Shown here: positions 3,759 to 58,261 of the stretch, one piece after another
Position numbering within the stretch: the first letter of the stretch is position 1
Layout: each line of letters begins with the position of its first letter
Assembly: GCF_001632775.1 (NCBI RefSeq)
Contig: NZ_CP015249.1
Location: forward strand, 1,034,686-1,098,685
DNA: 64,000 nucleotides
Source of the DNA: Dokdonella koreensis DS-123
GTDB taxonomy: Bacteria; Pseudomonadota; Gammaproteobacteria; Xanthomonadales; Rhodanobacteraceae
Direction of reading: 5' to 3'
The notes under the pieces: model-generated
Told to the model about the DNA's origin: nothing
Seen by the model: the letters and a program-made list of their open reading frames with translations, nothing else
Database searches by the model: none
Position numbers and translations under genes: made by a program

Positions 3759-5264
3759 ATGAGCGGTACCGCCACGTCGCCTGCGGGCGACACGCTTCCC
3801 CAGTTCCCGCAGACGCTGGGCCATCCGCGCCCATTGTGGATGCTGTTCATGACGGAGTTCTGGGAACGCTTCGCGTTCTACGGCATGCGCTGGGCACTGG
3901 CCCTGTACATCGTCGCCCAGTTCTACGCGGGCGACAGCGCCGGCGAGGCACCGGCCAGCCGGCTCTACGGCGCCTACCTGGCACTGGTCTACGCGGCAGC
4001 GCTGTTCGGCGGCTACGTCGCGGATCGGGTCATCGGCTACCAGCGCTCGATCCTGCTCGGCGCGGTGATCATGGCCGCCGGCCTGTTCCTGATCATGATG
4101 CCCAATGAGGCGCTGTTCAAACTCGGCCTGGCGACGGTGATCGTCGGCAACGGCCTGTTCAAGCCGAACATCTCGACGATGGTCGGCAAGCTCTACGTCA
4201 CCGGCGACGAGCGCCGCGATTCGGGTTTCACGCTCTTCTACATGGGCATCAACCTCGGCGCGATGCTGGCGCCGTGGCTGACCGGCATCCTGGCCGAGCG
4301 CATCATGGGCGGCACCCCGCAGATGCCCGCCTACAAGGTGGTGTTCCTGGTTTCGGGCATCGGCATGCTGATCAGCCTGGTGTGGTTCTGGTTCGGCCGC
4401 AAGCAGCTGCTCGGTATCGGCCGGCCGCCGGAAGGCGCCGAAGGCAGCGGGCGCGTATTGGTGACGGCGATCTGCGCGATCGTCGCCATTCCGGCCTTCT
4501 ACTTCCTGCTCTCGATCGGTGCCGGTGCGCTGCAGTGGATCCTGACGGCGCTGTTCATCGGACTGTGCGTGCTGATCCTGAAGGAAGGCTTCAAGGACGG
4601 TGCGATCCGGCGGGACATGGCCGTGGCCATGCTGATCATCTTCGTCTTCAACGTGCTGTTCTGGTGCTTCTTCGAGCAGGCCGGCAGCTCGTTCAACTTC
4701 CTCGCCCAGAACATCGTCAACCGTGACTTCAGCGGTTGGATCTTCCCGGTCGGCTGGTTCCAGTCGGTCAACTCGCTGGCGATCATCACGCTGGCGCCGG
4801 TACTGGCCTGGCTGTGGGTGAAGATGGGCCGCCACAACCCGTCGATCCCGCGCAAGTTCGGCCTCGGCCTCATCTTCAACGGCCTGGCCTTCCTGCTGCT
4901 GATATTCGCGCTGTCCGGCCTGGTCGATCCGCAGACGCTGAAGATCCCGTTCTGGACGCTGTTCATGGTCTACGTCATCCAGTCGGTCGGCGAGCTGTGC
5001 CTGTCGCCGATCGGCCTGTCGATGGTGACCAAGCTCGCGCCGGTGCGCCTCGTCGGCTTCGGCATGGGCGGCTGGTTCCTGTCGACCGCGATCGGCAACA
5101 ACCTGTCGGGCATCTTCGCCAGCCACGTCAGTGGCGAGAGCGGCATGAACCTGGAGTCCGCGCTGAGCGGCTACACCTTCGGCTTCTGGGCGCTGGTGAT
5201 CCCGGGTGCGCTGCTGTTCCTGATCGCGCCGCTGATCCAGCGCCTCATGCACGGCGTCAAGTAG
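3759..5264 (+). CDS. POT/PTR2-family proton-coupled di/tripeptide transporter
   Basis: 501 aa, inner membrane, with 12-14 predicted hydrophobic helices. It has the POT proton-coupling motif ExxERF(Y) near the N-terminus (EFWERFAFYGMRWAL) and the PTR2 signature around FYMGINLGAMLAPWLTG. The family imports short peptides with protons. Next to tryptophan and tyrosine catabolism it may feed peptide-derived aromatic amino acids, but that is inference. ATG at 3759 follows a GCAGGAG ribosome site. A strong terminator follows the stop. Confidence 0.93.
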   Translation: MSGTATSPAGDTLPQFPQTLGHPRPLWMLFMTEFWERFAFYGMRWALALYIVAQFYAGDSAGEAPASRLYGAYLALVYAAALFGGYVADRVIGYQRSILLGAVIMAAGLFLIMMPNEALFKLGLATVIVGNGLFKPNISTMVGKLYVTGDERRDSGFTLFYMGINLGAMLAPWLTGILAERIMGGTPQMPAYKVVFLVSGIGMLISLVWFWFGRKQLLGIGRPPEGAEGSGRVLVTAICAIVAIPAFYFLLSIGAGALQWILTALFIGLCVLILKEGFKDGAIRRDMAVAMLIIFVFNVLFWCFFEQAGSSFNFLAQNIVNRDFSGWIFPVGWFQSVNSLAIITLAPVLAWLWVKMGRHNPSIPRKFGLGLIFNGLAFLLLIFALSGLVDPQTLKIPFWTLFMVYVIQSVGELCLSPIGLSMVTKLAPVRLVGFGMGGWFLSTAIGNNLSGIFASHVSGESGMNLESALSGYTFGFWALVIPGALLFLIAPLIQRLMHGVK

Positions 5265-5866: not shown

Positions 5867-6970
5867 ATGAATGCCCAGCCCCATCCGACCGTACCCAATA
5901 CCGGCATGCAGGTCACGACGTTCGAGAACCCGATGGGTGTCGACGGCTTCGAGTTCGTCGAGTTCGCCGCACCCGACCCGCAGCTCCTGCACACGCTGTT
6001 CGCCAATCTGGGCTTCGCCGCCGTCGCCCGCCACCGCACGCGCAAGGTGACGCTGTACCGGCAGGGCGACTGCAATTTCCTCGTCAACGAGGAGCCCGAC
6101 TCGTTCGCCGCCGACTTCGTCAAGGCGCACGGCCCGAGTGCATGCGGGTTCGCGATCCGGTTCCGCAAGCCCGCGGCCGAAGTGCTGGCGGCAACGCTCG
6201 CCAATGGCGGCGAGGAGATCACCCACAAGGCCGATACCCGCGCGGTCGACGTGCCGGTCATCAAGGGCATCGGCGACTGCATGCTGTACCTGGTCGACCG
6301 CTACGGCGCCGAAGGCTCGGTCTACGACGCCGAGTACGAATGGCTGCCGGGCGTGGAGCGTCATCCGAAGGGTTTCGGCCTGACCTTCATCGACCACCTC
6401 ACGCACAACCTCTACTTCGGCAACATGGCGCGCTGGGCCGACTACTACGAGCGCCTGTTCAACTTCCGCGAGATCCGCTACTTCGACATCAAGGGCGCCA
6501 AGACCGGCCTGGTCTCCAAGGCGATGACCGCGCCGGACGGCATGGTGCGCATCCCGCTCAACGAGTCGGCCGACGCCAAGTCGCAGATCAACGAATACCT
6601 CGACGAGTACAAGGGCGAGGGTATCCAGCACATCGCCTGCTTCACCGACAGCATCTACGAGACGGTCGAGGCGATGCGCGCGCGGGGCGTGGCCTTCCTC
6701 GATACGCCGGAGACCTACTACGAGGTCATCGACCAGCGCATCCCCGACCACGGCGAGGACGTGCCGCGCATGCAGCGCAACAAGCTGCTGATCGACGCGG
6801 ATCCGGAAACCCAGAAGAAGCTGCTGCTGCAGATCTTCACGCAGAACTGCATCGGTCCGATCTTCTTCGAGATCATCCAGCGCAAGGGCAACGAGGGCTT
6901 CGGCAACGGCAATTTCCAGGCGCTGTTCGAAAGCATCGAGCGCGACCAGATGCGTCGCGGCGTGCTCTAG
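5867..6970 (+). CDS. hppD: 4-hydroxyphenylpyruvate dioxygenase
   Basis: 367 aa, vicinal-oxygen-chelate fold. It converts 4-hydroxyphenylpyruvate to homogentisate with one non-haem Fe(II). The iron ligands can be assigned as His177 (FIDHLTHN), His255 (IQHIACFTD) and Glu335 ([15 protein letters not shown]). First gene of a tyrosine/phenylalanine degradation run hppD-hmgA-fah-maiA, driven by the operator-containing promoter just upstream. ATG at 5867 is preceded by CGGAG. A homogentisate-accumulating (pyomelanin) phenotype would be expected if hmgA failed while this gene worked. Confidence 0.96.
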
Positions 6971-7086
6971 GCGCGGCCGAGAAACAGCCCGCCGGCTCCC
7001 GCGTCCGCCGCTGCGGCCGATCGGGACCGGCGCAACAGGTCTCCAGGGTCATCGCTCCGCCGTCGCGGGGCATCGAGGGTGGCGGC

Positions 7087-8394
7087 ATGACTTCATCCAG
7101 TTCCGGCAACTACCAGTCCGGTTTCGGCAACGAGTTCGCGACCGAGGCGCTGGCGGGCGCGCTGCCCGAAGGGCGCAACTCGCCGCAGCGCGCCGCCTAC
7201 GGGCTCTATGCCGAACAGATCTCCGGCACGGCCTTCACGGCACCGCGGCACGCCAACCGGCGCAGCTGGCTGTACCGCATCCGGCCGGCGGCGATGCACC
7301 GGCCGTTCGAGCCGCTCGCCCACGCCACCTGGCACAACCGCTTCGACGAGGCGCCGGCCACGCCGAACCAGCTGCGCTGGGACCCGTTGCCGCTGCCGGC
7401 AGCGCCGACCGACTTCATCGACGGCCTGCTCACGGTCGCCGGCAACGGCGGTCCGGCCGCGCAGGCCGGCATCGGCATCTACCTCTACGCGGCCAACCGG
7501 TCGATGCAGGGCCGCTTCCTCTACAGCGCCGACGGCGAATTCCTGATCGTCCCCGAGCACGGCCGGCTGCGGATCGCCACCGAGCTCGGCCTGATCGAGG
7601 TCGAGCCGCAGCAGGTCGCCCTGATTCCGCGCGGCATCCGCTTCCGGGTCGAGTTGCCCGACGGCGCGGCGCGCGGCTATGTCGCCGAGAACTTCGGCGC
7701 GAGCCTGCGCCTGCCGGACCTGGGTCCGATCGGCTCCAACGGGCTGGCCAATCCGCGTGATTTCCAGGCGCCGGTGGCGGCCTACGAGGACGTCGAGGGC
7801 GACTTCGAGCTGATCGCCAAGTTCCAGGGCAGCCTGTGGCGGGCCTCGATCGGCCACTCCCCGCTCGACGTGGTGGCCTGGCACGGCAACCACGTGCCGT
7901 ACCGCTACGACCTGCGCCGCTTCAACACGATCGGCTCGATCAGCTACGACCACCCGGATCCGTCGATCTTCACGGTGCTGACCTCGCCGAGCGACACGCC
8001 CGGCACGGCGAACCTGGACTTCGTGATCTTCCCGCCGCGCTGGCTGTGCGCCGAGGACACGTTCCGGCCGCCGTGGTTCCACCGCAACATCGCCAGCGAA
8101 TTCATGGGGCTGGTGCACGGCGCCTACGACGCCAAGGCGGGCGGTTTCGTGCCGGGCGGCAGCAGCCTGCACAATTGCATGAGCGGGCACGGGCCGGACG
8201 CGGCCAGTTTCGAGAAGGCCTCGGCCGCCGACACGTCGAAGCCGGATCACGTCGTCGATACGATGGCCTTCATGTTCGAGACCCGCGCCGTGATCCGCCC
8301 GACCCGGCAGGCGCTGGAATCGCCGCTGCTGCAGCGCGACTACTACGCCTGCTGGCAGGGCCTGCGCAAACACTTCGATGCCGCGCGCCGCTGA
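7087..8394 (+). CDS. hmgA: Homogentisate 1,2-dioxygenase
   Basis: 435 aa, the normal length. Opens the ring of homogentisate to 4-maleylacetoacetate using Fe(II). Recognisable from the N-terminal [19 protein letters not shown], the PPRW segment, and the iron-site region [18 protein letters not shown] followed by the [12 protein letters not shown] loop. The frame is open far upstream, but ATG 7087 after GAGGGTGG is the natural start. It lies 116 bp after hppD and 33 bp before fah, so it is probably cotranscribed. Confidence 0.96.
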
Positions 8395-8427
8395 GCGCCG
8401 CCCGGCGAACCGGATGGAGAATCACCG

Positions 8428-9429
8428 ATGAAGCTTGCAAGTCTCAAGGAAGGCGGCCGTGACGGCACGCTGATCGTCGTCGACCGCGCCCTGCGCCGGG
8501 CCGTGGCCGCCACCGGCATCGCCGCCACGCTGCAGGCCGCGCTGGATGCCTGGGAAGCGGTCGCGCCGCGCCTCAACGCGCTGTACGAGGACCTGCAGGC
8601 CGGCCGCGCCGCGGACGCCTTCGACCTGGATGTCGGCCAGCTGGCAGCGCCGCTGCCGCGCGCCTACGAGTTCGTGGACGGCAGCGCCTACCTGCCGCAC
8701 GTCGAGCGGGTGCGGCGTGCCCGCGGTGCCGAGGTACCGGCCAGCTTCTACACCGACCCGCTGATGTACCAGGCGACCAGCGCCGGCTTCCTCGGTCCGC
8801 GCGATCCGGTGCTGGCCGCCAGCGAGGACTGGGGTATCGACCTGGAGGCCGAGGTCGTCGTCGTCACCGACGACGTGCCGATGGGCCTCACGCCGGCCGC
8901 GGCGGCCGACCGCATCCAGCTGGTCGGCCTGGTCAACGACGTATCGCTGCGCGGGCTGATCCCGCCGGAGCTCGCCAAGGGCTTCGGCTTCCTGCAATCC
9001 AAGCCGCGTTCGGCGCTGTCGCCGGTGCTGGTGACGCCGGACGAGCTCGGCGATGCGTGGCGCGACAGCAAGCTGCACCTGCCGATGCGTACCTGGATCA
9101 ACGGGCACTGGTTCGGCGAGGCCGAGGCCGGCGTGGACATGCAGTTCAGCTTCGCCGACCTGATCGCCCATGCCGCCAAGACCCGGCCGCTGACGGCCGG
9201 CACGATCGTCGGCTCCGGCACGATCGCCAACGAGGACACCGCCAAGGGCGCCTCTTGCCTCGCCGAGCAGCGGACGGTGGAAACCCTGCGCGACGGCCAG
9301 CCGGCCACGCCGTTCCTGAAGTTCGGCGACGTCGTCCGCATCGAGATCACCGACGGGCAGGGCGCCAGCCTGTTCGGCGCCATCGAGCAGCGCATCGAGC
9401 GCTATTCGCCGCCCGTTCGCGAGTCCTGA
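8428..9429 (+). CDS. Fumarylacetoacetate hydrolase (fumarylacetoacetase)
   Basis: 333 aa, shorter than animal fumarylacetoacetase but of the length seen in the bacterial pathway enzyme. The catalytic FAH fold spans roughly residues 100-330, with the metal-ligand run of acidic residues at DWGIDLEAEVVVVTDD and a GSGTIANED turn near the end. It splits fumarylacetoacetate into fumarate and acetoacetate, the last step of tyrosine degradation. A good GGAG ribosome site precedes ATG 8428. Position between hmgA and maiA supports the assignment over generic FAH-family decarboxylases or isomerases. Confidence 0.9.
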   Translation: MKLASLKEGGRDGTLIVVDRALRRAVAATGIAATLQAALDAWEAVAPRLNALYEDLQAGRAADAFDLDVGQLAAPLPRAYEFVDGSAYLPHVERVRRARGAEVPASFYTDPLMYQATSAGFLGPRDPVLAASEDWGIDLEAEVVVVTDDVPMGLTPAAAADRIQLVGLVNDVSLRGLIPPELAKGFGFLQSKPRSALSPVLVTPDELGDAWRDSKLHLPMRTWINGHWFGEAEAGVDMQFSFADLIAHAAKTRPLTAGTIVGSGTIANEDTAKGASCLAEQRTVETLRDGQPATPFLKFGDVVRIEITDGQGASLFGAIEQRIERYSPPVRES

Positions 9430-9483
9430 GATAATCGCCGGGCGTCGATTCCGGCGATGCACGTGACGGGGGAGGCCCGGGCG

Positions 9484-10152
9484 ATGAGCGAACGCTTGAC
9501 GCTGTACAGCTACTGGCGATCCAGCGCGGCCTATCGCGTCCGCATCGCCCTCAACCTCAAGATGCTGCCGTACGACCAGGTGCCCGTGCACCTGGTCAAC
9601 AACGGCGGCGAGCAGCACGATCCGGTGTTCCACGAGCTCAATCCGCAGGAGCTGGTGCCGGTGCTGATCGACGGGCGCCGCGTCGTGCGCCAGTCGCTGG
9701 CGATCGTCGAGTACCTGGACGAAGCCTACGACGGCGCGATGAAGCTGCTGCCGCCGATGATCCGCGACCGCGCACGCGTACGCGCGCTGGCCCAGCTGAT
9801 CGCCTGCGACGTCCATCCGCTCAACAACCTGCGCGTGATGCAGTACCTGGAGCGCGAGCTGGCCGCCGACGCCGAGCAGCGCCAGCGCTGGACGCAACAC
9901 TGGATCCGCGAAGGACTGCGCGCGTTCGAGGAGATGCTGGTCGAGCATCCGTCCACCGGCCGCTACTGCGAGGGTGACTCGCCGGGGCTGGCGGACATCT
10001 GCCTGATACCCCAGGTCTACAACGCGCACCGTTTCCGCGTGGACCTGACGCCGTACCCGACGATCGCGCGCATCGAGCAGGCCTGCCTGGAACTGCCGGC
10101 CTTCGATACGGCGCGTCCCGAGAACCAGCCCGACGTGCCGGGAACGGCCTGA
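9484..10152 (+). CDS. maiA: Maleylacetoacetate isomerase (zeta-class GST)
   Basis: 222 aa from ATG 9484. I prefer this start over ATG 9457 because a strong GGGGGAGG ribosome site lies just before it and MSERLTLYSYWRSSAAYRV is the usual N-terminus. The zeta-class glutathione motif SSxxYRVRIAL is at about residues 11-21; the C-terminal all-helical GST domain follows. It isomerises 4-maleylacetoacetate to 4-fumarylacetoacetate with glutathione. Fourth gene of the pathway run, 54 bp after fah; the gap contains a GATAAT element that might be a weak internal promoter. Confidence 0.94.
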   Translation: MSERLTLYSYWRSSAAYRVRIALNLKMLPYDQVPVHLVNNGGEQHDPVFHELNPQELVPVLIDGRRVVRQSLAIVEYLDEAYDGAMKLLPPMIRDRARVRALAQLIACDVHPLNNLRVMQYLERELAADAEQRQRWTQHWIREGLRAFEEMLVEHPSTGRYCEGDSPGLADICLIPQVYNAHRFRVDLTPYPTIARIEQACLELPAFDTARPENQPDVPGTA

Positions 10153-10215: not shown

Positions 10216-11040
10216 TCAGGCGGCGGTGCGGCGGCTCTGCATGCGCTGCTGCAGCAGCAACTGCTCGGCCAGGCCTTCCGGATCCAGCGTCTCCGCTTCG
10301 CTGCTGCTCCAGTGGATCAGTTCGAGACGGCCGTCGTGGTGCTCGACGATGGCCGTGCAGCTGTCGACCCAGTCGCCGCAGTTGACGTAGCGGATCCCCT
10401 CGATGTCGCGCAGCGCCGCCACGTGGATGTGGCCACAGATCACGCCGTCCAGGCCGCGCTCGCGGACGGCGCGTGCCACCGAACCCTCGAAGTCGCCGAC
10501 GAAGCTGACCGCCGCCTTGACCTTGCGCTTGGCGTAGCCGGCCAGCGACCAGTAGCCGGCGATGCCGAGCTTGCGGCGCAGCCACGAGAGCCAGCCGTTG
10601 GCGTGCACCAGCCAGGTGTAGCCGACGTCGCCGAGCACGGCCAGCCAGCGGTGGTAGCGGGTGACCTGGTCGAACTCGTCGCCGTGCAGGACCAGATAGC
10701 GCTTGCCCTCGGCCGTGGTGTGCACCCATTCGCGCTCCAGGCGGATGTCGCCGAAGCGGATGCCGGTGTATTCGCGCAGCGCCTCGTCGTGGTTGCCCGG
10801 GATGAAGATGACCTGCTCGCCGTGGCGGGCGCGGCGCAGGATCTTCTGCACGACGGTGTTCTGCGCGGCGGTCCAGCGCACGTCGCGGCGCATCGCCCAG
10901 AAGTCCACGATGTCGCCGACCAGGTACAGGTACTCGGCCGGGTAGGCGCGCAGGAAGCCGAGCAGGCGCTCGGCCTGGCAGGCCCGGGTTCCCAGGTGGA
11001 CGTCGGAGATGAAGACCGAGCGGACCCGATGGATGTTCAT
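10216..11040 (-). CDS. COG2908-type metallophosphoesterase, candidate phospholipase C (PlcP-like)
   Basis: 274 aa, calcineurin-like phosphoesterase with a complete metal set: D13/H15 (SDVHLG), D43 (VGDIVDF), N83-H84-D85 (GNHDE), H119 (LHGDE), H204/H206 (CGHIHV). Automatic annotation would say UDP-2,3-diacylglucosamine diphosphatase (LpxH). Context argues otherwise: it overlaps btaB by the ATGA junction at 11037-11040, so it is translationally coupled to betaine-lipid genes. The same family includes PlcP, which frees diacylglycerol from phospholipids under phosphate starvation, and diacylglycerol is the lipid substrate of BtaA. PlcP is therefore my preferred reading; an LpxH role is not excluded. 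Confidence 0.75.
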   Translation of the reverse strand: MNIHRVRSVFISDVHLGTRACQAERLLGFLRAYPAEYLYLVGDIVDFWAMRRDVRWTAAQNTVVQKILRRARHGEQVIFIPGNHDEALREYTGIRFGDIRLEREWVHTTAEGKRYLVLHGDEFDQVTRYHRWLAVLGDVGYTWLVHANGWLSWLRRKLGIAGYWSLAGYAKRKVKAAVSFVGDFEGSVARAVRERGLDGVICGHIHVAALRDIEGIRYVNCGDWVDSCTAIVEHHDGRLELIHWSSSEAETLDPEGLAEQLLLQQRMQSRRTAA

Positions 11041-11768
11041 GGCTTGGTCCCCACGAAGCGGTAGTAGGGCACGCGCAGCAGCGGGAGATACGGCAGCCGC
11101 CCCCGCGCCTCGACCAGCGCATGCGTGGGCAGCGTGCCGCACAGCGTCGGCAGCTGCTCCGGATCGAGCCGTACGCCGTCGTGGCCGAACCAGGCCGGCC
11201 AGAAGCGGCGGGTCGGCCAGGCGTGACGCCGGCAGCCGGCCGCGGGGCGCTCGGCCGAGACGTAGAAATCGACCACGGCCAGCGTGCCGCCGGGCTTGAG
11301 CATCGCGATGGCCGAATGCAGTGCCGCGCGCCAGTTGGGAATCATCGTCAGCGCATAGGACAGGATCACCGCATCGACCGGCTGCGCCGGCTGCCAGCGC
11401 GTGGCGTCCGCCTCGATCGCGTGCAGCTGCGGGAAGTGCCGCGCACGGATCCGCGCACGCTCGAGCATCGGCGCGCACAGGTCGACCACCTCGTAGCGGG
11501 CGATGCCGGCGGTGCGCGGGCCGAAGAACTCCAGGTTGCGGCCGGTGCCGCCGCCCAGGTCGACGACGTGGGCGGCGGCGGGCAGCGGGATGGTGGCGAT
11601 CAACGCCTCGCGCCCGTGCAGCAGGCGCTCGCGGAACGCGTCGTAGTGGTCCGCCTGCGGGGCATAGAACGCGGCCAGTCGCGCCGCCAGCGTATCGCCG
11701 GCCGGCATGCCGCGCGTCATCGCGCGCAGCACGGCCAGGTCGGCGCGCAGGGCGTCAAGCCGGCGCAT
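11037..11768 (-). CDS. btaB: BtaB-like SAM N-methyltransferase (diacylglyceryl-homoserine to DGTS)
   Basis: 243 aa, class I SAM methyltransferase. Motif I is VVDLGGGTGRN at 68-78. The motif IV/post region ILSYALTMIPNWRAAL closely resembles what I recall of Rhodobacter BtaB (ISYALSMIPDWRAAI). BtaB methylates the amino group of diacylglyceryl-homoserine three times to give the betaine lipid DGTS. The start overlaps the end of btaA by 14 bp and its stop overlaps the metallophosphoesterase start (ATGA), giving a tight three-gene operon. Function is from family resemblance plus partner; it is not proven that this organism makes DGTS. Confidence 0.82.
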   Translation of the reverse strand: MRRLDALRADLAVLRAMTRGMPAGDTLAARLAAFYAPQADHYDAFRERLLHGREALIATIPLPAAAHVVDLGGGTGRNLEFFGPRTAGIARYEVVDLCAPMLERARIRARHFPQLHAIEADATRWQPAQPVDAVILSYALTMIPNWRAALHSAIAMLKPGGTLAVVDFYVSAERPAAGCRRHAWPTRRFWPAWFGHDGVRLDPEQLPTLCGTLPTHALVEARGRLPYLPLLRVPYYRFVGTKP

Positions 11769-13011
11769 CGGCGATCACGAAGCCGGGGTAGGTATGGACG
11801 CGGTCGTGCGGCTGCAGCGCGGCGGCCCGGGCCTCGTCGAACGCCAGCCGTTCGCGCAGCGTCCCGCCCGCGCCGACGCGGACCTGGTCCAGCCAGGCCG
11901 GCCGGGACTGTGCGCTGCGCAGCAGGACGCGCGCGCCTGGCGCGGCCCGCGCCAGGATCGCTTCCCATTCCTCGTCCAGCGCCGCCGGATGGTAGGAGGC
12001 CATCCAGTCCATGTGGTCGAGCAGGACGAACCGCGAGATCGGCGCGTCGCCGCCCTGCAGGAAGGACGTGACGGTGGCGGTGTGCAGGTGGATGCGATCG
12101 GCCAGCCCGGCCTTGAGGCGCTCGAAGTTGGCGCGCTTGAGGTATTCGGGGCAGCAGTCCGGCGCATAGCGTCCGGTCAGGTAGACGCGCCAGAAGTAGT
12201 TGTCGGCCAGCGGCAGCTCGCGGAAGACGTACTGCACGGCCTCGCGGATGAAGCCGGAGACGCCGTCGGCGTGCTCGGCCTCGACCAGGCGCCGCTGCGG
12301 ATGGGGCACCCCGAGCAGGTTCATGACCAGCTGGCGCGAAATCGTCCAGTTGACCGCGCGGTTCCACAGCAGCGGCGCGACGTGCTGGTCGTAGATCCGG
12401 CGCTGGGTGTCCAGGTCGCGCGCGGCGAGCAGGTCGAACATCGCCACGCGCAGGCGCGGCTGCGCGCGGAACCAGGCGCGCACGCCGCGGGCGACCAGGC
12501 CCGACAGGCCGTGGAAGTAGAAGCTGCCGCGCGTGCTGGCGAACCAGTGCGTATGGCGATCCCACCAGTCGCGCGCGAACGGCGTCAGGTGCGCGCGCAG
12601 GCGCGTGCGATAGAGGCGCTCGAAGTCGCCGTGGTGGCCGTCGCCGAAGATCGCGTAGAAGTCCTCGAACGACAGCGCGCGGATGCCGGCGAGCTTGAGC
12701 TCCAGCAGCGCGTTCTGGCGCGGGTTGGCGTCGACGCAGTCGATGCGGCGCGGGCCCTGCAGGGCGTAGTCCAGGGCGTTGCAGCCGGCGCTGGTGATGA
12801 CCAGCACGTGGTCGTCGGCGCCGAGGCCGAGCGCGACGCGATCGACTGCCGGGTCTTCCCAGCAGGTGTTGTAGACGAGGCTGCGCGACCAGATCGCGTT
12901 GAAGATCTTCTGGTCGACGCGGTCGCGCAGGCTGGGCCGCGTCGCGGCCGGTCGACTGGCTGACTGAATTGCGGGCATTCCGGGCGGTCCGTCCGATCGG
13001 TTCGCCGCCAT
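11755..13011 (-). CDS. btaA: BtaA-like (DUF3419) SAM:diacylglycerol 3-amino-3-carboxypropyltransferase
   Basis: 418 aa from ATG 13011. The DUF3419/BtaA hallmarks are present: YNTCWEDPAVD at about residues 47-57 (the Y..WEDP.VD signature), TSAGCNALDYAL at about 73-84 for SAM binding, and DANPRQNALLELKL. BtaA moves the aminocarboxypropyl group of SAM onto diacylglycerol to make diacylglyceryl-homoserine, the first step to DGTS. Alternative starts are ATG 12978 and GTG 13053; none has a strong ribosome site, so the first ~15 residues are uncertain. It is divergent from the OlsF-like gene with about 98 bp between starts. Confidence 0.85.
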   Translation of the reverse strand: MAANRSDGPPGMPAIQSASRPAATRPSLRDRVDQKIFNAIWSRSLVYNTCWEDPAVDRVALGLGADDHVLVITSAGCNALDYALQGPRRIDCVDANPRQNALLELKLAGIRALSFEDFYAIFGDGHHGDFERLYRTRLRAHLTPFARDWWDRHTHWFASTRGSFYFHGLSGLVARGVRAWFRAQPRLRVAMFDLLAARDLDTQRRIYDQHVAPLLWNRAVNWTISRQLVMNLLGVPHPQRRLVEAEHADGVSGFIREAVQYVFRELPLADNYFWRVYLTGRYAPDCCPEYLKRANFERLKAGLADRIHLHTATVTSFLQGGDAPISRFVLLDHMDWMASYHPAALDEEWEAILARAAPGARVLLRSAQSRPAWLDQVRVGAGGTLRERLAFDEARAAALQPHDRVHTYPGFVIADAPA

Positions 13012-13025
13012 CGTGGTCGGCGCAG

Positions 13026-13043
13026 ATGACAGTGGCGTGATCG
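13026..13043 (-). promoter_or_regulatory. Possible Pho-box-like direct repeat between btaA and the OlsF-like gene
   Basis: On the minus strand CGATCAC-gcca-CTGTCAT resembles the Pho box (two CTGTCAT repeats, 4-nt spacing); one half is perfect and the other matches 4 of 7. An 8 bp palindrome TCACGTGA (13050-13057) lies beside it. The position is close to the chosen btaA start, which would fit better if btaA began at 12978. Weak on its own; supported mainly by the phosphate-stress logic of the genes. Confidence 0.3.
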
Positions 13044-13109
13044 TTGCCGTCACGTGAATGCAATGCGCCGGTCCTAGCGTGCGGTGACTCCGACGACGAT
13101 GAGGCAGGC

Positions 13110-14849
13110 ATGCTCGATCTGGAAGGCAGGATCGAAGCACGGTTCCCGCAATGGTTCACCGGGCGGCGCGCGCCGTTCTCGCGGCAGCTGGTGCGCTCGC
13201 TGGCGCGCATCGCGCGCATCGACACGATCGATGCCTTCGTTCGCGACCATGCGCACCTGCGTGGCTTTGCGTTCGTCGAGGCGGCGCTGGAGCGGCTCGA
13301 TTGCCGCTTCCTGGTCGACCAGGTCGAGCGCGAGCGGATTCCCGAGAGCGGCCGCGTGGTCATCGTCGCCAACCATCCGATGGGTGCGATCGACGCGCTC
13401 GCGCTGCTGGCCTTCGTCGGCAGCGTGCGGCGCGACGTGCGCATCGTCGCCAACGATTTCCTCGCCGCGTTCGAGGGCCTGTCCGACCTGCTGATCCCGC
13501 TGCGCGTCTTCGGCGGCCGGGCCGGCGCCGACAGCCTGCGCCAGGTCGACCAGGCCTTGCGCAGCGAGCAGGCGGTGATCGTGTTCCCGGCCGGCGAGGT
13601 CTCGCGGCTGACGCCGCTGGGCGTGCGCGACGCCGCCTGGCGGCACGGTTTCCTGCGGTTCGCCGAGCAGGCGGCCGCGCCGGTGGTGCCGGTGCGCATC
13701 GAAGGGCGCAATTCGGCCTTGTTCTACGGCATGTCGGCCTTGTTCAAGCCGCTCGGCACCGGCCTGCTGCCGCGCGAGATCTTCGCGCGGCAGCAGAGCC
13801 GGCTGGTGATCCGGGTCGGCGCGCCGCGGCCGATCGGCGACGTGATGAGCGGCATCGCCGACCGGCGCCGGATCTCGCGCGAGGTGCGGCGGGCGGTCTA
13901 TGCCATCGGCCGGCGCGGCGATCGCTGGTCGGCGCTGCAGGCGCCGCTGGCGCACCGGCCCGCACCGGCGGCGATTCGCGCGGACGTGGAGCGCCTGCCG
14001 CTGCTCGGCGAGAACAGCGACGGCCTGCGCATCCACGCCGGGCGCCTGGCCACCGACTCGCCGCTGCTGCGCGAGATCGCGCGGCTGCGCGAGCTGACCT
14101 TCCGCAGCGTCGGCGAAGGCACCGGGCGCAGGCTCGACACCGACGTCTACGACAGCTGGTACGACCACATCGTCCTGTGGGATGCCGCGGCCGGCGAGGT
14201 GGCTGGTGCCTACCGCATCGCCGATTGCGCACGCGTGCTGGGCGAGCGCGGCCTGGACGGTCTCTATACGCGCAGCCTGTTCGAGATCGACGGACGCCTG
14301 CTGCCGGCGATCGAGCGCAGCGCCGAGCTGGGACGCAGCTTCGTCCAGCCGCGCTACCGCAACACACGCAGCCTCGACTGGCTCTGGCAGGGCATCGGCG
14401 CCTGGCTGCGCATCCACCCGCAGGTGCGCCACCTGTACGGGCCGGTCTCGATCAGCGCCGAGCTGCCGCTGGCGGCGCGCGAGCAGATCGTGGGCTACTA
14501 CGACCGCTACTTCGGCGGCGATCGCGGGCTGGCGCGGCCGTACCATCCGTTCCGCTACGCCGGCACGGCGCCGGACTTCGGGTCGCTCGACGCCGACCAG
14601 GCGATGGCCGCGCTGCGCGAGCGGCTGGAACCCAGCGGTGCCCGCGTGCCGATCCTGTATCGGCAGTACACCGAGCTGTGCGAGCCGGGCGGTGCCCGCT
14701 TCCTCGCGTTCGGCGTCGACCCGGCCTTCCGCAACAGCATCGACGGCCTGATCCTGATCGACCTGGACCGGCTGCGGCCGCGCAAGCGCGCACGCTACCT
14801 GCCGGCGCTGCCGGGACAGCGCCTCGCCGGCGAGACCGCCGACGCCTAG
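13110..14849 (+). CDS. OlsF-like two-domain acyltransferase (PlsC domain fused to OlsB-type GNAT domain)
   Basis: 579 aa. The N-terminal half is a PlsC-type acyltransferase: ANHPMGAIDALAL at 87-99, followed by RIVANDF, VFPAGEVSRL and PVVPVRIEGRNS. The catalytic spacing is His89-x5-Asp95, not the usual HX4D. The C-terminal half from about residue 300 is a haemolysin/OlsB-type N-acyltransferase (LRELTFRSVGEGTGRRLDTD, ELGRSFVQPRYRN). That domain order matches OlsF, which makes ornithine lipid with the C-terminal domain doing the first N-acylation and the N-terminal domain the second. The ATG at 13110 after GAGGC is chosen over 13044. Divergent from btaA; N-acyl amino acid lipids other than ornithine lipid are possible. 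Confidence 0.75.
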   Translation: MLDLEGRIEARFPQWFTGRRAPFSRQLVRSLARIARIDTIDAFVRDHAHLRGFAFVEAALERLDCRFLVDQVERERIPESGRVVIVANHPMGAIDALALLAFVGSVRRDVRIVANDFLAAFEGLSDLLIPLRVFGGRAGADSLRQVDQALRSEQAVIVFPAGEVSRLTPLGVRDAAWRHGFLRFAEQAAAPVVPVRIEGRNSALFYGMSALFKPLGTGLLPREIFARQQSRLVIRVGAPRPIGDVMSGIADRRRISREVRRAVYAIGRRGDRWSALQAPLAHRPAPAAIRADVERLPLLGENSDGLRIHAGRLATDSPLLREIARLRELTFRSVGEGTGRRLDTDVYDSWYDHIVLWDAAAGEVAGAYRIADCARVLGERGLDGLYTRSLFEIDGRLLPAIERSAELGRSFVQPRYRNTRSLDWLWQGIGAWLRIHPQVRHLYGPVSISAELPLAAREQIVGYYDRYFGGDRGLARPYHPFRYAGTAPDFGSLDADQAMAALRERLEPSGARVPILYRQYTELCEPGGARFLAFGVDPAFRNSIDGLILIDLDRLRPRKRARYLPALPGQRLAGETADA

Positions 14850-45466: not shown

Positions 45467-47232
45467 TCGTCGCGCAGCACGTTAAGGCGGTTGAAGAGGT
45501 GATCGTGATAGGAGGCCAGAATGCGCGTGTCGGCGCAATCCAGGTAGCGTCCCTTACAGCGCTCGCGCAGCAGCGTATTGGCCTGGTAGAACGGGTTGCG
45601 CGGGATGCCGGCGCTCTCCAGCAGCAGCGAGCCGAGGTAGACGATGTCGGTGATCGGGTAGTCGGCGCGCAGCGGCATCGGGTAGTTGGTCTTGAGCATG
45701 AAGTAGGTGACCAGGCTGCTGTTGGGACCCACGCCCTTGGGCAGCTTCTTCGGGATCACCTGGATCGCGCCGTCGAACGAGGGCTGGTGGTCGCCGAAAT
45801 GCAGCAGCACCGTCGGCTGCTTGCGGCCGAGCAGGTAGCGCTCGAGCTCGGCGAGCATCGCGTCGGACTGGCGCAGCCGTTCCAGGTAGTTGCCGAGGTT
45901 GAGGTTCAGCCATTCGTCGAGCTTGCGCGGCGCGAACCGACCCTCGAACAGCGGCGTGTCGAACGGTGCCGGCAGCAGCGCCAGCGGCGTCATGTGCGGG
46001 CCGTGCTGGTGCAGCGTCAGCATGAACACGAACAGCGGCCGGTCCGGATGGTCGAGCCGCTCCTGCGCGTAGATCTGGCGGAACACCGCCAGCAGGTCGG
46101 CATCGGTGCTCTCCCAGCCCAGGCCATAGTCGCTGCCGTCGTGGAAGGCGTCGAAGCCGTACAGCGCATAGGCGTTGCGGGCGTTGAGGAAATCGCCGGT
46201 GACCGGGTAGATCGCCACCGTCCGGTAGCCGGCGGCCTCGAATGCGCGCGGCAGCGTGAAGGCGACGCGCGGCGCCAGGTTGTACGGCGCATAGAGGCCG
46301 GCGTTGCCGAACAGCTTGTCGGCCAGGCCGGTCAGGAACGCGAATTCGCTGGTCCAGGTGCCGCCGCCGAAGGTGTGCACGTTGAGCAGGCCGCCGGCGC
46401 GGGTCTGCCGGTCGCGCTCGAACATCGGGTAGCGGCAGACCGGCAGCGAGCACATGCGCAGCAGGCGCGGGTCGAAGGTGCTTTCCTCCAGGATCGCGAC
46501 GACGTCGGGCTTCTGCGGCGGCGCGCGCAGCGGGCGGTCGAGCCGCCAGTCGATGCTGCGGTCGACCCCGGCCGGGATCGCCGGCTCGGCGATCTGGGTG
46601 TCGTTGAACGAGGTGAAGAAGTTGGTGATGAAGCTGCGATCGTTGATCGTCACCCACATCGGCTTGTTGAAGGCCGGCCGGAACGGCCCGGTCGGCGCGA
46701 GGCAGGCCGCGAACAGCACCAGGGCGGCCAGCGTGCCGGCGCCGCGCGCCGTCCGGCGCACGCCCGGTGCGCGGTCGGGCATCAGGCCGTCGCGCTCGGC
46801 GAAAAACGCCAGCAGCGGCAGGATCGGCAGCGCCAGCGCCGCGGCGACCGCTGCGGTCAGCAGCAGCGGATAGCGGCTGACGACCTCGATCGTCTCGCGG
46901 TTGACGAAGTACTTGAGATCCGGCGCCAGCAGCGGCGTCGTCAGGTAGGCGAACTTCAGCGTGCCGGCCAGCGCGATCGCGCCGAACACCAGGCCGGCCA
47001 GCAGCAGCGAGAACGCCACGCGTCCGGTCGCCAGCAGCAGGGCGGCCGTGGTCGTCAGCAGCAGGCACGACGCGAAGACCTTGTCGGCGAGGCCGTTCTC
47101 GGTGAGGGGACCGAAGATCAGCGCGGCGCCGAACACCGACAGGGCGAGGAAGCGCCATATCCACGGTCGGCGCCGGCCCGGCGCGGTTGGCAGCATGCCT
47201 GTCTTGAAAGGGTAACGAAGACCGGCGCGCAT
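45463..47232 (-). CDS. LTA synthase-like membrane sulfatase-fold phosphotransferase
   Basis: About 589 aa from ATG 47232 (ATG 47196 is equally possible; neither has a strong ribosome site). Roughly five N-terminal helices are followed by a periplasmic sulfatase/LtaS-type domain: nucleophile threonine in [16 protein letters not shown], metal region HQHGPHMTP, and [10 protein letters not shown]. In Gram-negatives such proteins are phosphoglycerol or phosphoethanolamine transferases acting on glucans or lipid A-type acceptors. It is inserted between lpxB and rnhB, so a lipid A or envelope role is plausible. No partner enzyme is nearby. Confidence 0.8.
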
Positions 47233-57498: not shown

Positions 57499-58241
57499 CC
57501 GGCCTGCCGCCGCGTCTGGGCCGGGGTCTGGCCGAACCGGCGCTCGCGCCGCGCGAAATCGGCGACGGCCAGTCCCAACACCTCGGCATCGACATCCGGC
57601 CAGAGTGCGTCGGTGAAGTAGAACTCGCTGTAGGCGGCCTGCCACAGCAGGAAATTGCTGATGCGCTGCTCGCCGCCGGTGCGGATGAACAGGTCCACCG
57701 CCGGCAGGTCCGACAGGCAGAAGAACGGCGCCAGGCCTGCTTCGTCGAGCGTCTGCGGGTCGAGCTCGCCGGCCGCCGCGGCCGCCGCGGCACGGCGGGC
57801 CGCCTGGACGATGTCCCAGCGGCCGCCGTAGTTGATGGCGATGTTGAGGTGCAGCGCCGTGTTGGCGGCGGTCTTCGCCGTCGCCTGGGTCATGCGGGCC
57901 TGCAGTTCCGGCGCGAACGCGGACAGGTCGCCGATGAAGGCGATGCGCACGCCGTGCTCGTGGAGCTGGCCGACCTCCTTCTCCAGCGCCTTCATGAACA
58001 GCTGCATCAGCGCGCCGACCTCCTCGGCCGGCCGCTTCCAGTTCTCGCTGGAGAACGCGAACAGCGTCAATGCGCCGATGCCCTGGCGCAGGCAGAACTC
58101 GATCGCCGCGCGCACGGCCTTCTGCCCGGCGCGATGGCCGAAGCTGCGCGGGCGATGGCGGCGCCCGGCCCAGCGGCCGTTGCCGTCCATCACGATGGCG
58201 ATGTGGCGCGGCGACGCCGGCGCCGGGTCGGAGACTGTCAT
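57495..58241 (-). CDS. uppS: Undecaprenyl diphosphate synthase
   Basis: 248 aa cis-prenyltransferase. Catalytic [11 protein letters not shown] at the N-terminus, [11 protein letters not shown], and the C-terminal [20 protein letters not shown] with the magnesium and diphosphate residues. Makes the C55 carrier for cell wall and envelope glycans. 20 bp after frr. Confidence 0.97.
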
Positions 58242-58261
58242 CGGGCGGTCGCGAAGGCCGC

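What the first reader, a model, noticed from the sequence alone, without database searches (positions are those of the whole stretch)
10216..14849. Compact phosphorus-free membrane lipid locus: btaA-btaB-plcP-like plus a divergent OlsF-like fusion
BtaA (Y..CWEDP.VD and SAGCNALDY motifs) and BtaB make the betaine lipid DGTS from diacylglycerol. The third gene, translationally coupled to btaB, is a COG2908 metallophosphoesterase, the family of PlcP, which releases diacylglycerol from phospholipids. The divergent neighbour looks like OlsF, which makes ornithine lipid. One 4.6-kb block could therefore strip phosphate from phospholipids, reuse the diacylglycerol for DGTS, and make ornithine lipid as well. 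Betaine-lipid remodelling is best known in alphaproteobacteria; finding all pieces together in a Xanthomonadales-type chromosome would be notable. The gene assignments rest on motifs; the pathway joining is inference.
Basis: partly seen in the sequence, partly recalled or inferred. Interest (0 to 1): 0.82.

Follow-up and report, generated by a model that had tools for sequence, protein, structure and literature searches.

The report
Phosphate-starvation membrane lipid swap cassette
A soil bacterium (probably Dokdonella koreensis) carries four genes packed into one block that very likely let it strip phosphorus out of its own membrane and replace it with two phosphorus-free fats when phosphate runs short; the enzymes are known kinds, but their grouping around one shared two-way control region is a new arrangement.

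Summary
10216-14849 encodes btaA, btaB and a PlcP-type phosphoesterase as an overlapping minus-strand operon, with a divergent olsF on the plus strand. OlsF passes the curated equivalog cut-off, 664 v 620 bits. The third protein is 51% identical to what is, by its neighbours, S. meliloti PlcP; it fails the LpxH models, and the genome has a true LpxH elsewhere. New here: (1) two divergent Pho-box-like sites between btaA and olsF, scored with a matrix trained on phoB promoters and raised in 9 of 9 Dokdonella-type loci, 8 distinct; the btaA-facing one is weaker. (2) All-or-none: 7 of 10 Dokdonella genomes have BtaA, OlsF and PlcP, the same 3 lack all; at least three flanking contexts. (3) Mosaic: BtaA is of the family type, PlcP is not (p-AU 0.004), nor is OlsF. 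(4) In 43 of 111 genomes PlcP sits directly behind OlsF, 39 of them without BtaA. plcP-btaA-btaB clusters are published (PMC4796936), so this is a new variant of a known kind. No lipid was measured.

The parts
10216..11040 (-). plcP: intracellular phospholipase C-type metallophosphoesterase (274 aa)
   Evidence: Pfam Metallophos; 51% identity over 250 aa to the S. meliloti protein beside acyl-homoserine-lactone synthase and LuxR genes; fails the LpxH cut-offs, 52 v 190 and 52 v 134 bits; trees
11037..11768 (-). btaB: SAM-dependent N-methyltransferase, last step to DGTS (243 aa)
   Evidence: Methyltransf_23/25/11; 35% identity over 186 aa to the methyltransferase next to the btaA stretch in S. 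meliloti; a BtaB at over 200 bits in 80 of 80 BtaA loci
11755..13011 (-). btaA: SAM:diacylglycerol 3-amino-3-carboxypropyltransferase (418 aa from 13011; start at 12978 also possible)
   Evidence: DUF3419, 387 bits; 31.8% identity to an S. meliloti stretch; conserved motifs in A1; tree
13010..13015 (-). candidate -10 element of btaA (CACGAT), 10 nt after the box; inferred
   Evidence: read from sequence; same box-to--10 spacing as in the genome's phoB promoter
13026..13043 (-). candidate Pho box facing btaA: CGATCAC-GCCA-CTGTCAT
   Evidence: rank 25 of 127,966 window positions with the phoB-trained matrix; half-site columns invariant in A2; best minus-strand hit at the same distance from the olsF box in 5 of 9 loci
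13047..13064 (+). candidate Pho box facing olsF: CCGTCAC-GTGA-ATGCAAT
   Evidence: rank 3 of 127,966 window positions; above the control 95th percentile in 9 of 9 loci, 8 distinct
13075..13080 (+). candidate -10 element of olsF (TAGCGT), 10 nt after the box; inferred
   Evidence: read from sequence; its A (13076) is an invariant column of A2
13110..14849 (+). olsF: bifunctional ornithine lipid synthase, O-acyltransferase plus GNAT N-acyltransferase (579 aa)
   Evidence: NCBIfam NF052615 equivalog, 664 bits v cut-off 620; Acyltransf_2 and Acetyltransf_5

Best explanation
This is a self-contained, very likely PhoB-controlled cassette for phosphorus-sparing membrane remodelling. When phosphate is short, PhoB binds the two divergent boxes between btaA and olsF and switches on both sides. 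PlcP cleaves membrane phospholipids (in Dokdonella mostly phosphatidylethanolamine and phosphatidylglycerol) to diacylglycerol plus a phosphoalcohol, freeing phosphate. BtaA moves the 3-amino-3-carboxypropyl group of SAM onto that diacylglycerol, and BtaB methylates it three times to the zwitterionic betaine lipid DGTS. OlsF independently builds ornithine lipid from ornithine and acyl-ACPs. Shown here by computation: gene identities, overlaps, conservation of the unit, and conserved Pho-box-like sites. Inferred: enzyme products, PhoB binding, and the flow of diacylglycerol from PlcP to BtaA.
For: Profiles and cut-offs. PlcP is 51% identical to the S. meliloti protein next to acyl-homoserine-lactone synthase and LuxR genes, which fits SMc00171 (tag recalled). 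A separate LpxH exists in the genome at 292 v 190 bits. btaA-btaB-plcP runs occur in 17 of 80 loci, and PlcP lies within 3 kb in 27 of 80. BtaA, OlsF and PlcP are present together in 7 and absent together in 3 of 10 Dokdonella genomes. Pho-box-like sites: 9 of 9 Dokdonella-type loci (8 distinct) exceed the control 95th percentile in both directions, p 1.5e-7 (olsF side) and 3.8e-7 (btaA side); rows are related and the 1316 control tiles include the region itself. Precedent: in S. meliloti PhoB controls DGTS, ornithine lipid and PlcP genes (PMC3972451, passages), and a Phaeobacter plcP mutant loses DGTS (PMC4796936, passages).
Against: No lipid or transcript data exist here. The generic E. coli Pho pattern is not enriched genome-wide (174 and 184 hits v 200 and 187 for the control). 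The btaA-facing box is weak (rank 25). Its best hit stands at the fixed distance from the olsF box in only 5 of 9 loci (4 of 8 distinct); it is 1 nt off in L081, 3 nt off in L270, and begins at the next half-site in the window (-11) and in L272 (-10). btaA upstream regions outside Dokdonella give little signal (3 of 12 above control, p 0.03). Polar lipids reported for D. [quoted passage not shown] Those cells were grown in R2A broth without stated starvation, and that genome was not checked for the cassette.
Confidence: 0.8

Rival explanations
1. The third gene is a lipid A enzyme (LpxH-like UDP-diacylglucosamine pyrophosphatase), as public annotation of such proteins says, and has no part in phospholipid turnover.
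For: The 4 PDB sequences matched are all named UDP-2,3-diacylglucosamine hydrolase; most annotated plasmid homologues listed are called UDP-2,3-diacylglucosamine diphosphatase.
Against: It fails both LpxH equivalog cut-offs (52 v 190 and 52 v 134 bits); the genome has a real LpxH with GNRDF where this protein has GNHDE; 51% identity to the S. meliloti protein; linkage to btaAB and olsF.
Confidence: 0.05
2. The genes are functional but not phosphate-controlled: DGTS and ornithine lipid serve another stress (salt, temperature, cationic peptides) or are constitutive.
For: The btaA-facing site is weak and its register varies; one of two V. cholerae OlsF proteins answers to low to medium salinity rather than phosphate (PMC12186959, passages).
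Against: Conserved phoB-like boxes, on the olsF side with the phoB-like 10-nt spacing to a candidate -10; co-linkage with PlcP, whose known role is phosphate salvage.
Confidence: 0.13
3. The neighbourhood is accidental: lipid genes that happen to lie together in one strain.
For: Of 19 BtaA-positive genomes of the order outside Dokdonella, only 2 (G091, G073) show all four genes in the stretch read; 4 of 80 genome-contig loci hold an OlsF in the stretch.
Against: The same 4.5-kb block in three different flanking contexts; all-or-none in the genus; four-gene loci in other arrangements in Chiayiivirga (L036/L102) and in G073 (L040).
Confidence: 0.02

Closest known systems
Type 1 plcP-btaA-btaB cluster of Phaeobacter sp. 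MED193 (PMC4796936, passages)
   Same: PlcP plus BtaA and BtaB in one cluster; putative Pho boxes reported in plcP clusters; DGTS shown to depend on plcP
   Different: There btaA and btaB are downstream of plcP and no olsF is mentioned in the passages seen; here plcP is the last gene and olsF is divergent across a shared control region
Sinorhizobium meliloti PhoB-controlled lipid remodelling (PlcP, BtaA/BtaB, OlsBA)
   Same: The same lipid logic: phospholipid to DAG to DGTS, plus ornithine lipid, under PhoB (PMC3972451, passages)
   Different: The S. meliloti genes are apart (btaA stretch and plcP about 390 kb apart in CP090106.1); ornithine lipid there is made by OlsB/OlsA, not fused OlsF (PMC12186959, passages)
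OlsF of Serratia proteamaculans and Vibrio cholerae VC0489
   Same: Bifunctional O- and N-acyltransferase; VC0489 is PhoB-controlled (PMC12186959, passages)
   Different: No btaAB or plcP neighbour is mentioned in the passages seen
btaA-btaB-plcP runs in beta- and gammaproteobacterial genomes (this work)
   Same: Gene order; most of their PlcPs form one clade with the Dokdonella PlcP
   Different: 14 of the 17 show no OlsF in the stretch held, some of which are short; L078 and L081 are Dokdonella-type; L106 has an OlsF about 5.6 kb away

Membership tests
BtaA (DGTS synthesis, step 1) | DUF3419 domain over nearly the full length | tested here: met
   387.5 bits, residues 37-414
BtaA (DGTS synthesis, step 1) | Similarity to a BtaA in a known DGTS maker and adjacency to a BtaB | tested here: met
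   31.8% identity, 90% coverage to an S. meliloti stretch that matches in two pieces; BtaB adjacent in both
BtaA (DGTS synthesis, step 1) | Clade with biochemically proven BtaA | tested here: inconclusive
   No R. sphaeroides BtaA was fetched and the S. meliloti stretch was not put in the tree; window BtaA falls in a 90-row clade of BtaB-linked proteins (quick tree)
BtaA (DGTS synthesis, step 1) | Makes DGTS with BtaB | not testable with these tools
   needs expression and lipid analysis
BtaB (DGTS synthesis, step 2) | SAM methyltransferase fold and pairing with BtaA | tested here: met
   no NCBIfam equivalog cut-off was reached by it
PlcP | Metallophosphoesterase motifs DxH, GDxxD, GNHD, HGD, GHxH (list recalled) | tested here: met
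   read in the sequence; my pattern for GNHD was mis-set and returned nothing
PlcP | Close similarity to the studied S. meliloti PlcP | tested here: met
   51% identity over 250 aa; identity of that gene inferred from its neighbours
PlcP | Phospholipase C activity releasing DAG | not testable with these tools
   needs enzyme assay
LpxH | Curated equivalog score | tested here: not met
   52.3 v 190.35 and 51.6 v 134 bits
OlsF | Curated equivalog score | tested here: met
   664 v 620 bits; 663.8 in the genome search
OlsF | Both domains: acyltransferase and GNAT | tested here: met
   PF19576 25-265 and PF13444 326-427
Pho regulon | Direct repeat of 7-mers with 11-nt period, olsF-facing | tested here: met
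   rank 3 in the window, 9 of 9 loci above control
Pho regulon | Direct repeat of 7-mers with 11-nt period, btaA-facing | tested here: inconclusive
   half-sites invariant in A2 and scores above control, but rank 25 and register differs in 4 of 9 loci
Pho regulon | PhoB-dependent induction | not testable with these tools
   needs transcription data

The most novel reading that the evidence does not exclude
A mobile, mosaic phosphate-saving membrane cassette: PlcP is a promiscuous partner that has been joined repeatedly and independently to whichever phosphorus-free lipid synthase is at hand (btaAB, olsF, or both), and Dokdonella carries the most complete form, in which one bidirectional PhoB promoter fires degradation of phospholipid and synthesis of two replacement lipids together. 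A corollary is that in the genomes with an olsF-plcP pair and no BtaA, PlcP releases diacylglycerol that ornithine lipid cannot use, so these bacteria should have a diacylglycerol sink that is not yet recognised (glycosyltransferases of the Agt kind were not searched for).
Probability: 0.4. Interest if true: 0.62.

Novelty: new variant of a known kind. Interest (0 to 1): 0.47.

Why it matters
Phosphorus limits growth in many waters and soils, and lipid remodelling is best known from marine and plant-associated alphaproteobacteria and from algae. A compact cassette in what is probably a type strain in culture makes DGTS and ornithine lipid production in Lysobacterales directly testable. The olsF-plcP pairs, seen in 43 of 111 genomes of the order in which both proteins were listed, pose a concrete question: where does the diacylglycerol go when no betaine lipid pathway is present? 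It also warns that genes annotated as UDP-2,3-diacylglucosamine diphosphatase beside btaAB or olsF are probably PlcP.

Tried and rejected
LpxH reading of the third gene: rejected. Accidental neighbourhood: rejected. The E. coli Pho consensus as evidence on its own: rejected, because it is not enriched in the genome; a matrix seeded with that consensus and trained on phoB promoters replaced it. A conserved stretch at window 4128-4286 that matched near the cassette in four other loci lies in a transporter reading frame, 3759-5264, that looks like an MFS/POT peptide transporter by eye. Rfam gave no match in the window at gathering scores, ARAGORN no tRNA. PDB sequence search gave only LpxH-named chains for PlcP and nothing for BtaA or OlsF; no fold was predicted. 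A clustering of other neighbours of btaAB gave mostly shadow reading frames; a glycosyltransferase-like family in 10 of 80 loci is named by eye only. NCBIfam gave no family for BtaA.

Choices and dropped rows. L247 was dropped from the matrix training because its upstream stretch was not a promoter region, leaving 22 of 23. In one search the L081 region was mis-cut and scored negative; re-cut it. The 2 of 983 tiles that reach both best scores may be the region itself. L082, L084 and L102 were dropped from the BtaA tree as duplicates of L031, L032 and L036, and that tree holds one duplicate by oversight, L198 = L029. The PlcP subset tree used 62 of the 104 PlcP rows, chosen after the larger tree was seen, so its p-AU is not from a blind choice. 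Of the btaAB-linked PlcP rows, L146 and L155 (tandem), L107, L110, L122 and L129 (plcP first), and the native-type divergent ones fall outside the Dokdonella clade. The large PlcP tree is the quick tree, its careful search did not finish; the BtaA and OlsF trees are quick trees; each PlcP tree carried a long-branch warning.
Full report
WHAT IS THERE. The block 10216-14849 holds four genes. On the minus strand, btaA (11755-13011), btaB (11037-11768) and a plcP-like gene (10216-11040) overlap by 14 and 4 nt, the latter as ATGA, so the operon is tightly packed and the last two genes look translationally coupled. On the plus strand olsF (13110-14849) diverges from btaA across 98 or 131 bp, depending on which ATG starts btaA. 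Pfam gives DUF3419 for BtaA (387 bits), class I methyltransferase for BtaB, Metallophos for PlcP, and Acyltransf_2 plus Acetyltransf_5 for OlsF. OlsF exceeds the curated equivalog cut-off for bifunctional ornithine lipid synthase, 664 v 620 bits. NCBIfam gave no family for BtaA and only sub-threshold methyltransferases for BtaB.

WHOSE GENOME. The window lies in a genome of 4,446,619 bases held as one contig. D. koreensis DS-123 has one contig of 4446 kb and 70.5% G+C (PMC13178995, Table 1, passages); the window has 70.2%, and the nearest named BtaA is from a Dokdonella MAG at 85%. The genome is therefore very probably D. koreensis DS-123 or close kin. This is an inference; the genome itself is unnamed.

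THE THIRD GENE IS PlcP, NOT LpxH. It scores 52.3 bits on one LpxH model (cut-off 190.35) and 51.6 on the other (cut-off 134). The same genome has a true LpxH at 292 bits, 1031424-1032116, about 2.6 kb before the window starts. Its sequence shows GNRDF where the cassette protein has GNHDE. The cassette protein is 51% identical over 250 aa to the S. meliloti protein that lies beside acyl-homoserine-lactone synthase and LuxR genes, the place of SMc00171 (locus tag recalled). According to PMC3972451 (passages), S. meliloti PlcP cleaves PE, MMPE and PC to phosphoalcohol and diacylglycerol, and PhoB controls it together with the DGTS and ornithine lipid genes.

THE UNIT IS REAL. In Dokdonella, BtaA, OlsF and PlcP are each found in 7 of the 10 genomes held, the same 7; G210, G300 and G301 lack all three. 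The divergent olsF-btaA layout is seen in 7 of 7, and btaB and plcP directly after btaA in 6; in G304 a contig end cuts btaA, and the rest lies on another contig. Outside the cassette the flanks differ: the window and its nearest relative share tyrosine-degradation and GntR/Lut genes on either side, four loci (L027, L028, L270, L271) share other flanks, and L081 aligned by blastn to the window and to those four only over the cassette. The glutathione S-transferase gene next to the cassette here exists in 10 of 10 genomes, but the GntR neighbour in only 2 of 10. The G+C of the cassette (71.7%) does not stand out much from the window (70.2%). No empty site was compared.

CONTROL REGION. Five Dokdonella-type intergenic regions were aligned: of 26 invariant columns, 17 fall into four short half-sites (my count), two per strand, each pair 11 nt apart, as in Pho boxes. 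The half-sites were noticed in this alignment first, so a matrix was then trained without it, seeded with the E. coli consensus and fitted to 22 phoB upstream regions from the genus and order; the genome's own phoB site is CTGTCAT-CGCG-CCGTAAC. With it the olsF-facing site 13047-13064 ranks 3 of 127,966 positions in the window and the btaA-facing site 13026-13043 ranks 25. Across 9 Dokdonella-type loci (8 distinct; L078 and L269 give identical sites), 9 of 9 exceed the control 95th percentile in both directions, and 8 of 9 the 99th on the olsF side, p 1.5e-7 and 3.8e-7 against 1316 tiles. The rows are related and the tiles include the region itself, so these p-values are rough. The olsF-facing box starts 59-70 bp before the olsF start in all nine. 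In the window a TAGCGT follows it after 10 nt, the same spacing as from the own phoB box to TGCAAT. The btaA-facing box is weaker: its best hit stands at a fixed distance from the olsF box in 5 of 9 loci (4 of 8 distinct), is 1 nt off in L081 and 3 nt off in L270, and begins at the next half-site in the window and in L272. The generic E. coli pattern is not enriched in the genome, so the sites rest on conservation and on the trained matrix. Upstream of olsF elsewhere in the order the signal is also raised: 9 of 20 tandem olsF-plcP loci above the control 95th percentile, p 2.6e-11; 5 of 20 other olsF loci, p 2.9e-7. Upstream of non-Dokdonella btaA it is weak: 3 of 12, p 0.03.

SPREAD AND PARTNERS. 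BtaA occurs in 22 of 299 sampled genomes of the order, own included. A PlcP-like protein at E <= 1e-25 occurs in 170 of 299, including 21 of the 22 with BtaA (my reading of both lists; G052, 84% complete, is the exception). OlsF at E <= 1e-60 occurs in 153 of 299, including 19 of the 22 (not G019, G052, G059). So PlcP and OlsF are common here and BtaA is not. Among 111 genomes in which both PlcP and OlsF places were listed, 43 have plcP directly behind olsF on the same strand, gaps 30-348 nt, and only 4 of those 43 have BtaA. In 80 of 80 a BtaB is found; 27 have PlcP within 3 kb: 17 as btaA-btaB-plcP, 6 divergent, 4 with plcP first; 1 more lies further off and 52 have none in the stretch held, some of which are short. 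OlsF is in the stretch in 4 of 80 (L078, L081, L102, L106).

MOSAIC ORIGIN. The BtaA tree (quick) puts Dokdonella BtaA with those of its own family and order (19 rows, support 89, one a duplicate), next to a group with divergent plcP, including genus g12, whose PlcP is of the native family kind. The PlcP trees disagree with that. In the large quick tree Dokdonella PlcP lies in a 19-row clade (93; inner 17 rows 99) whose other 14 rows are all btaAB-linked PlcPs of beta- and gammaproteobacterial or unspecified records. In the careful 62-row tree the Dokdonella rows and 13 such PlcPs are one clade (99/93), and holding Dokdonella with the native family PlcPs is rejected (p-AU 0.004; the subset was chosen after seeing the first tree). 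Not all btaAB-linked PlcPs belong there: L146, L155, L107, L110, L122, L129 and the native-type divergent ones fall elsewhere. Dokdonella OlsF groups with the Chiayiivirga OlsF that also lies beside btaAB (99, quick tree) and outside the 16-row clade of the family's usual OlsF; four OlsF rows of the same family (genus g9) also fall outside that clade. PlcP was thus probably exchanged, or joined to the same BtaAB lineage more than once. Four-gene loci in other arrangements (Chiayiivirga L036/L102; G073 L040) point the same way.

WHAT IS KNOWN. PMC4796936 (passages) describes plcP-btaA-btaB clusters (type 1), putative Pho boxes in plcP clusters, and loss of DGTS in a plcP mutant of Phaeobacter. 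PMC12186959 (passages) reports PhoB control of VC0489 OlsF. My search of the held open-access library for plcP with olsF gave 4 papers. I searched passages of one, PMC9239053, and saw no statement of olsF beside plcP; the other three I saw only in listings. Dokdonella with betaine lipid gave no paper; Dokdonella with polar lipid gave 3, of which I read passages of one, PMC13178995. Betaine lipid with Gammaproteobacteria, DGTS and phosphate gave 8, of which I read passages of two, PMC10667739 and PMC4796936; the former says betaine lipids have been reported in Gammaproteobacteria among others. A wider search with the order's genera listed 8 of 507 papers and settles nothing. Most subscription papers are not held, so this is not proof of absence.

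VERDICT. Gene assignments are secure at the level of sequence; the pathway is the best reading at about 0.8. The arrangement is a new variant of a known kind. What would lift its interest is lipid data and an answer to where diacylglycerol goes in olsF-plcP genomes without BtaA.

Noticed in passing
   Followed up: partly
L170:4001-4040 (G000:C1:2006781-2006820): Four Pho-like half-sites in tandem before a gene for a probably secreted protein, some 3 kb from a PstS-like gene, in the window's own genome; probably a true Pho promoter. The gene names are by eye.
   Followed up: partly
window 47199-47216 (+) and 58235-58252 (+): The two top-scoring Pho-box-like sites of the whole window (15.0 and 12.8) lie outside the cassette; which genes they precede was not examined.
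   Followed up: no
L095, L120, L122, L127, L136, L140, L142, L146, L148, L155: A family that looks like glycosyltransferases (by eye) lies near btaAB in 10 of 80 loci; could be glycolipid synthases of the Agt kind.
   Followed up: no
window 5867-10152: A homogentisate/tyrosine degradation run (HppD-like and HmgA-like by eye; FAA hydrolase and GST by Pfam) ends just before the cassette; ordinary.
   Followed up: no
L177:3001-4139 (S. meliloti CP090106.1): The btaA stretch of this S. meliloti record matches in two pieces and has no listed gene, so it may be broken in that record; described only. The record is labelled pSymB at 3.7 Mb, which suggests a mislabelled chromosome.
   Followed up: no
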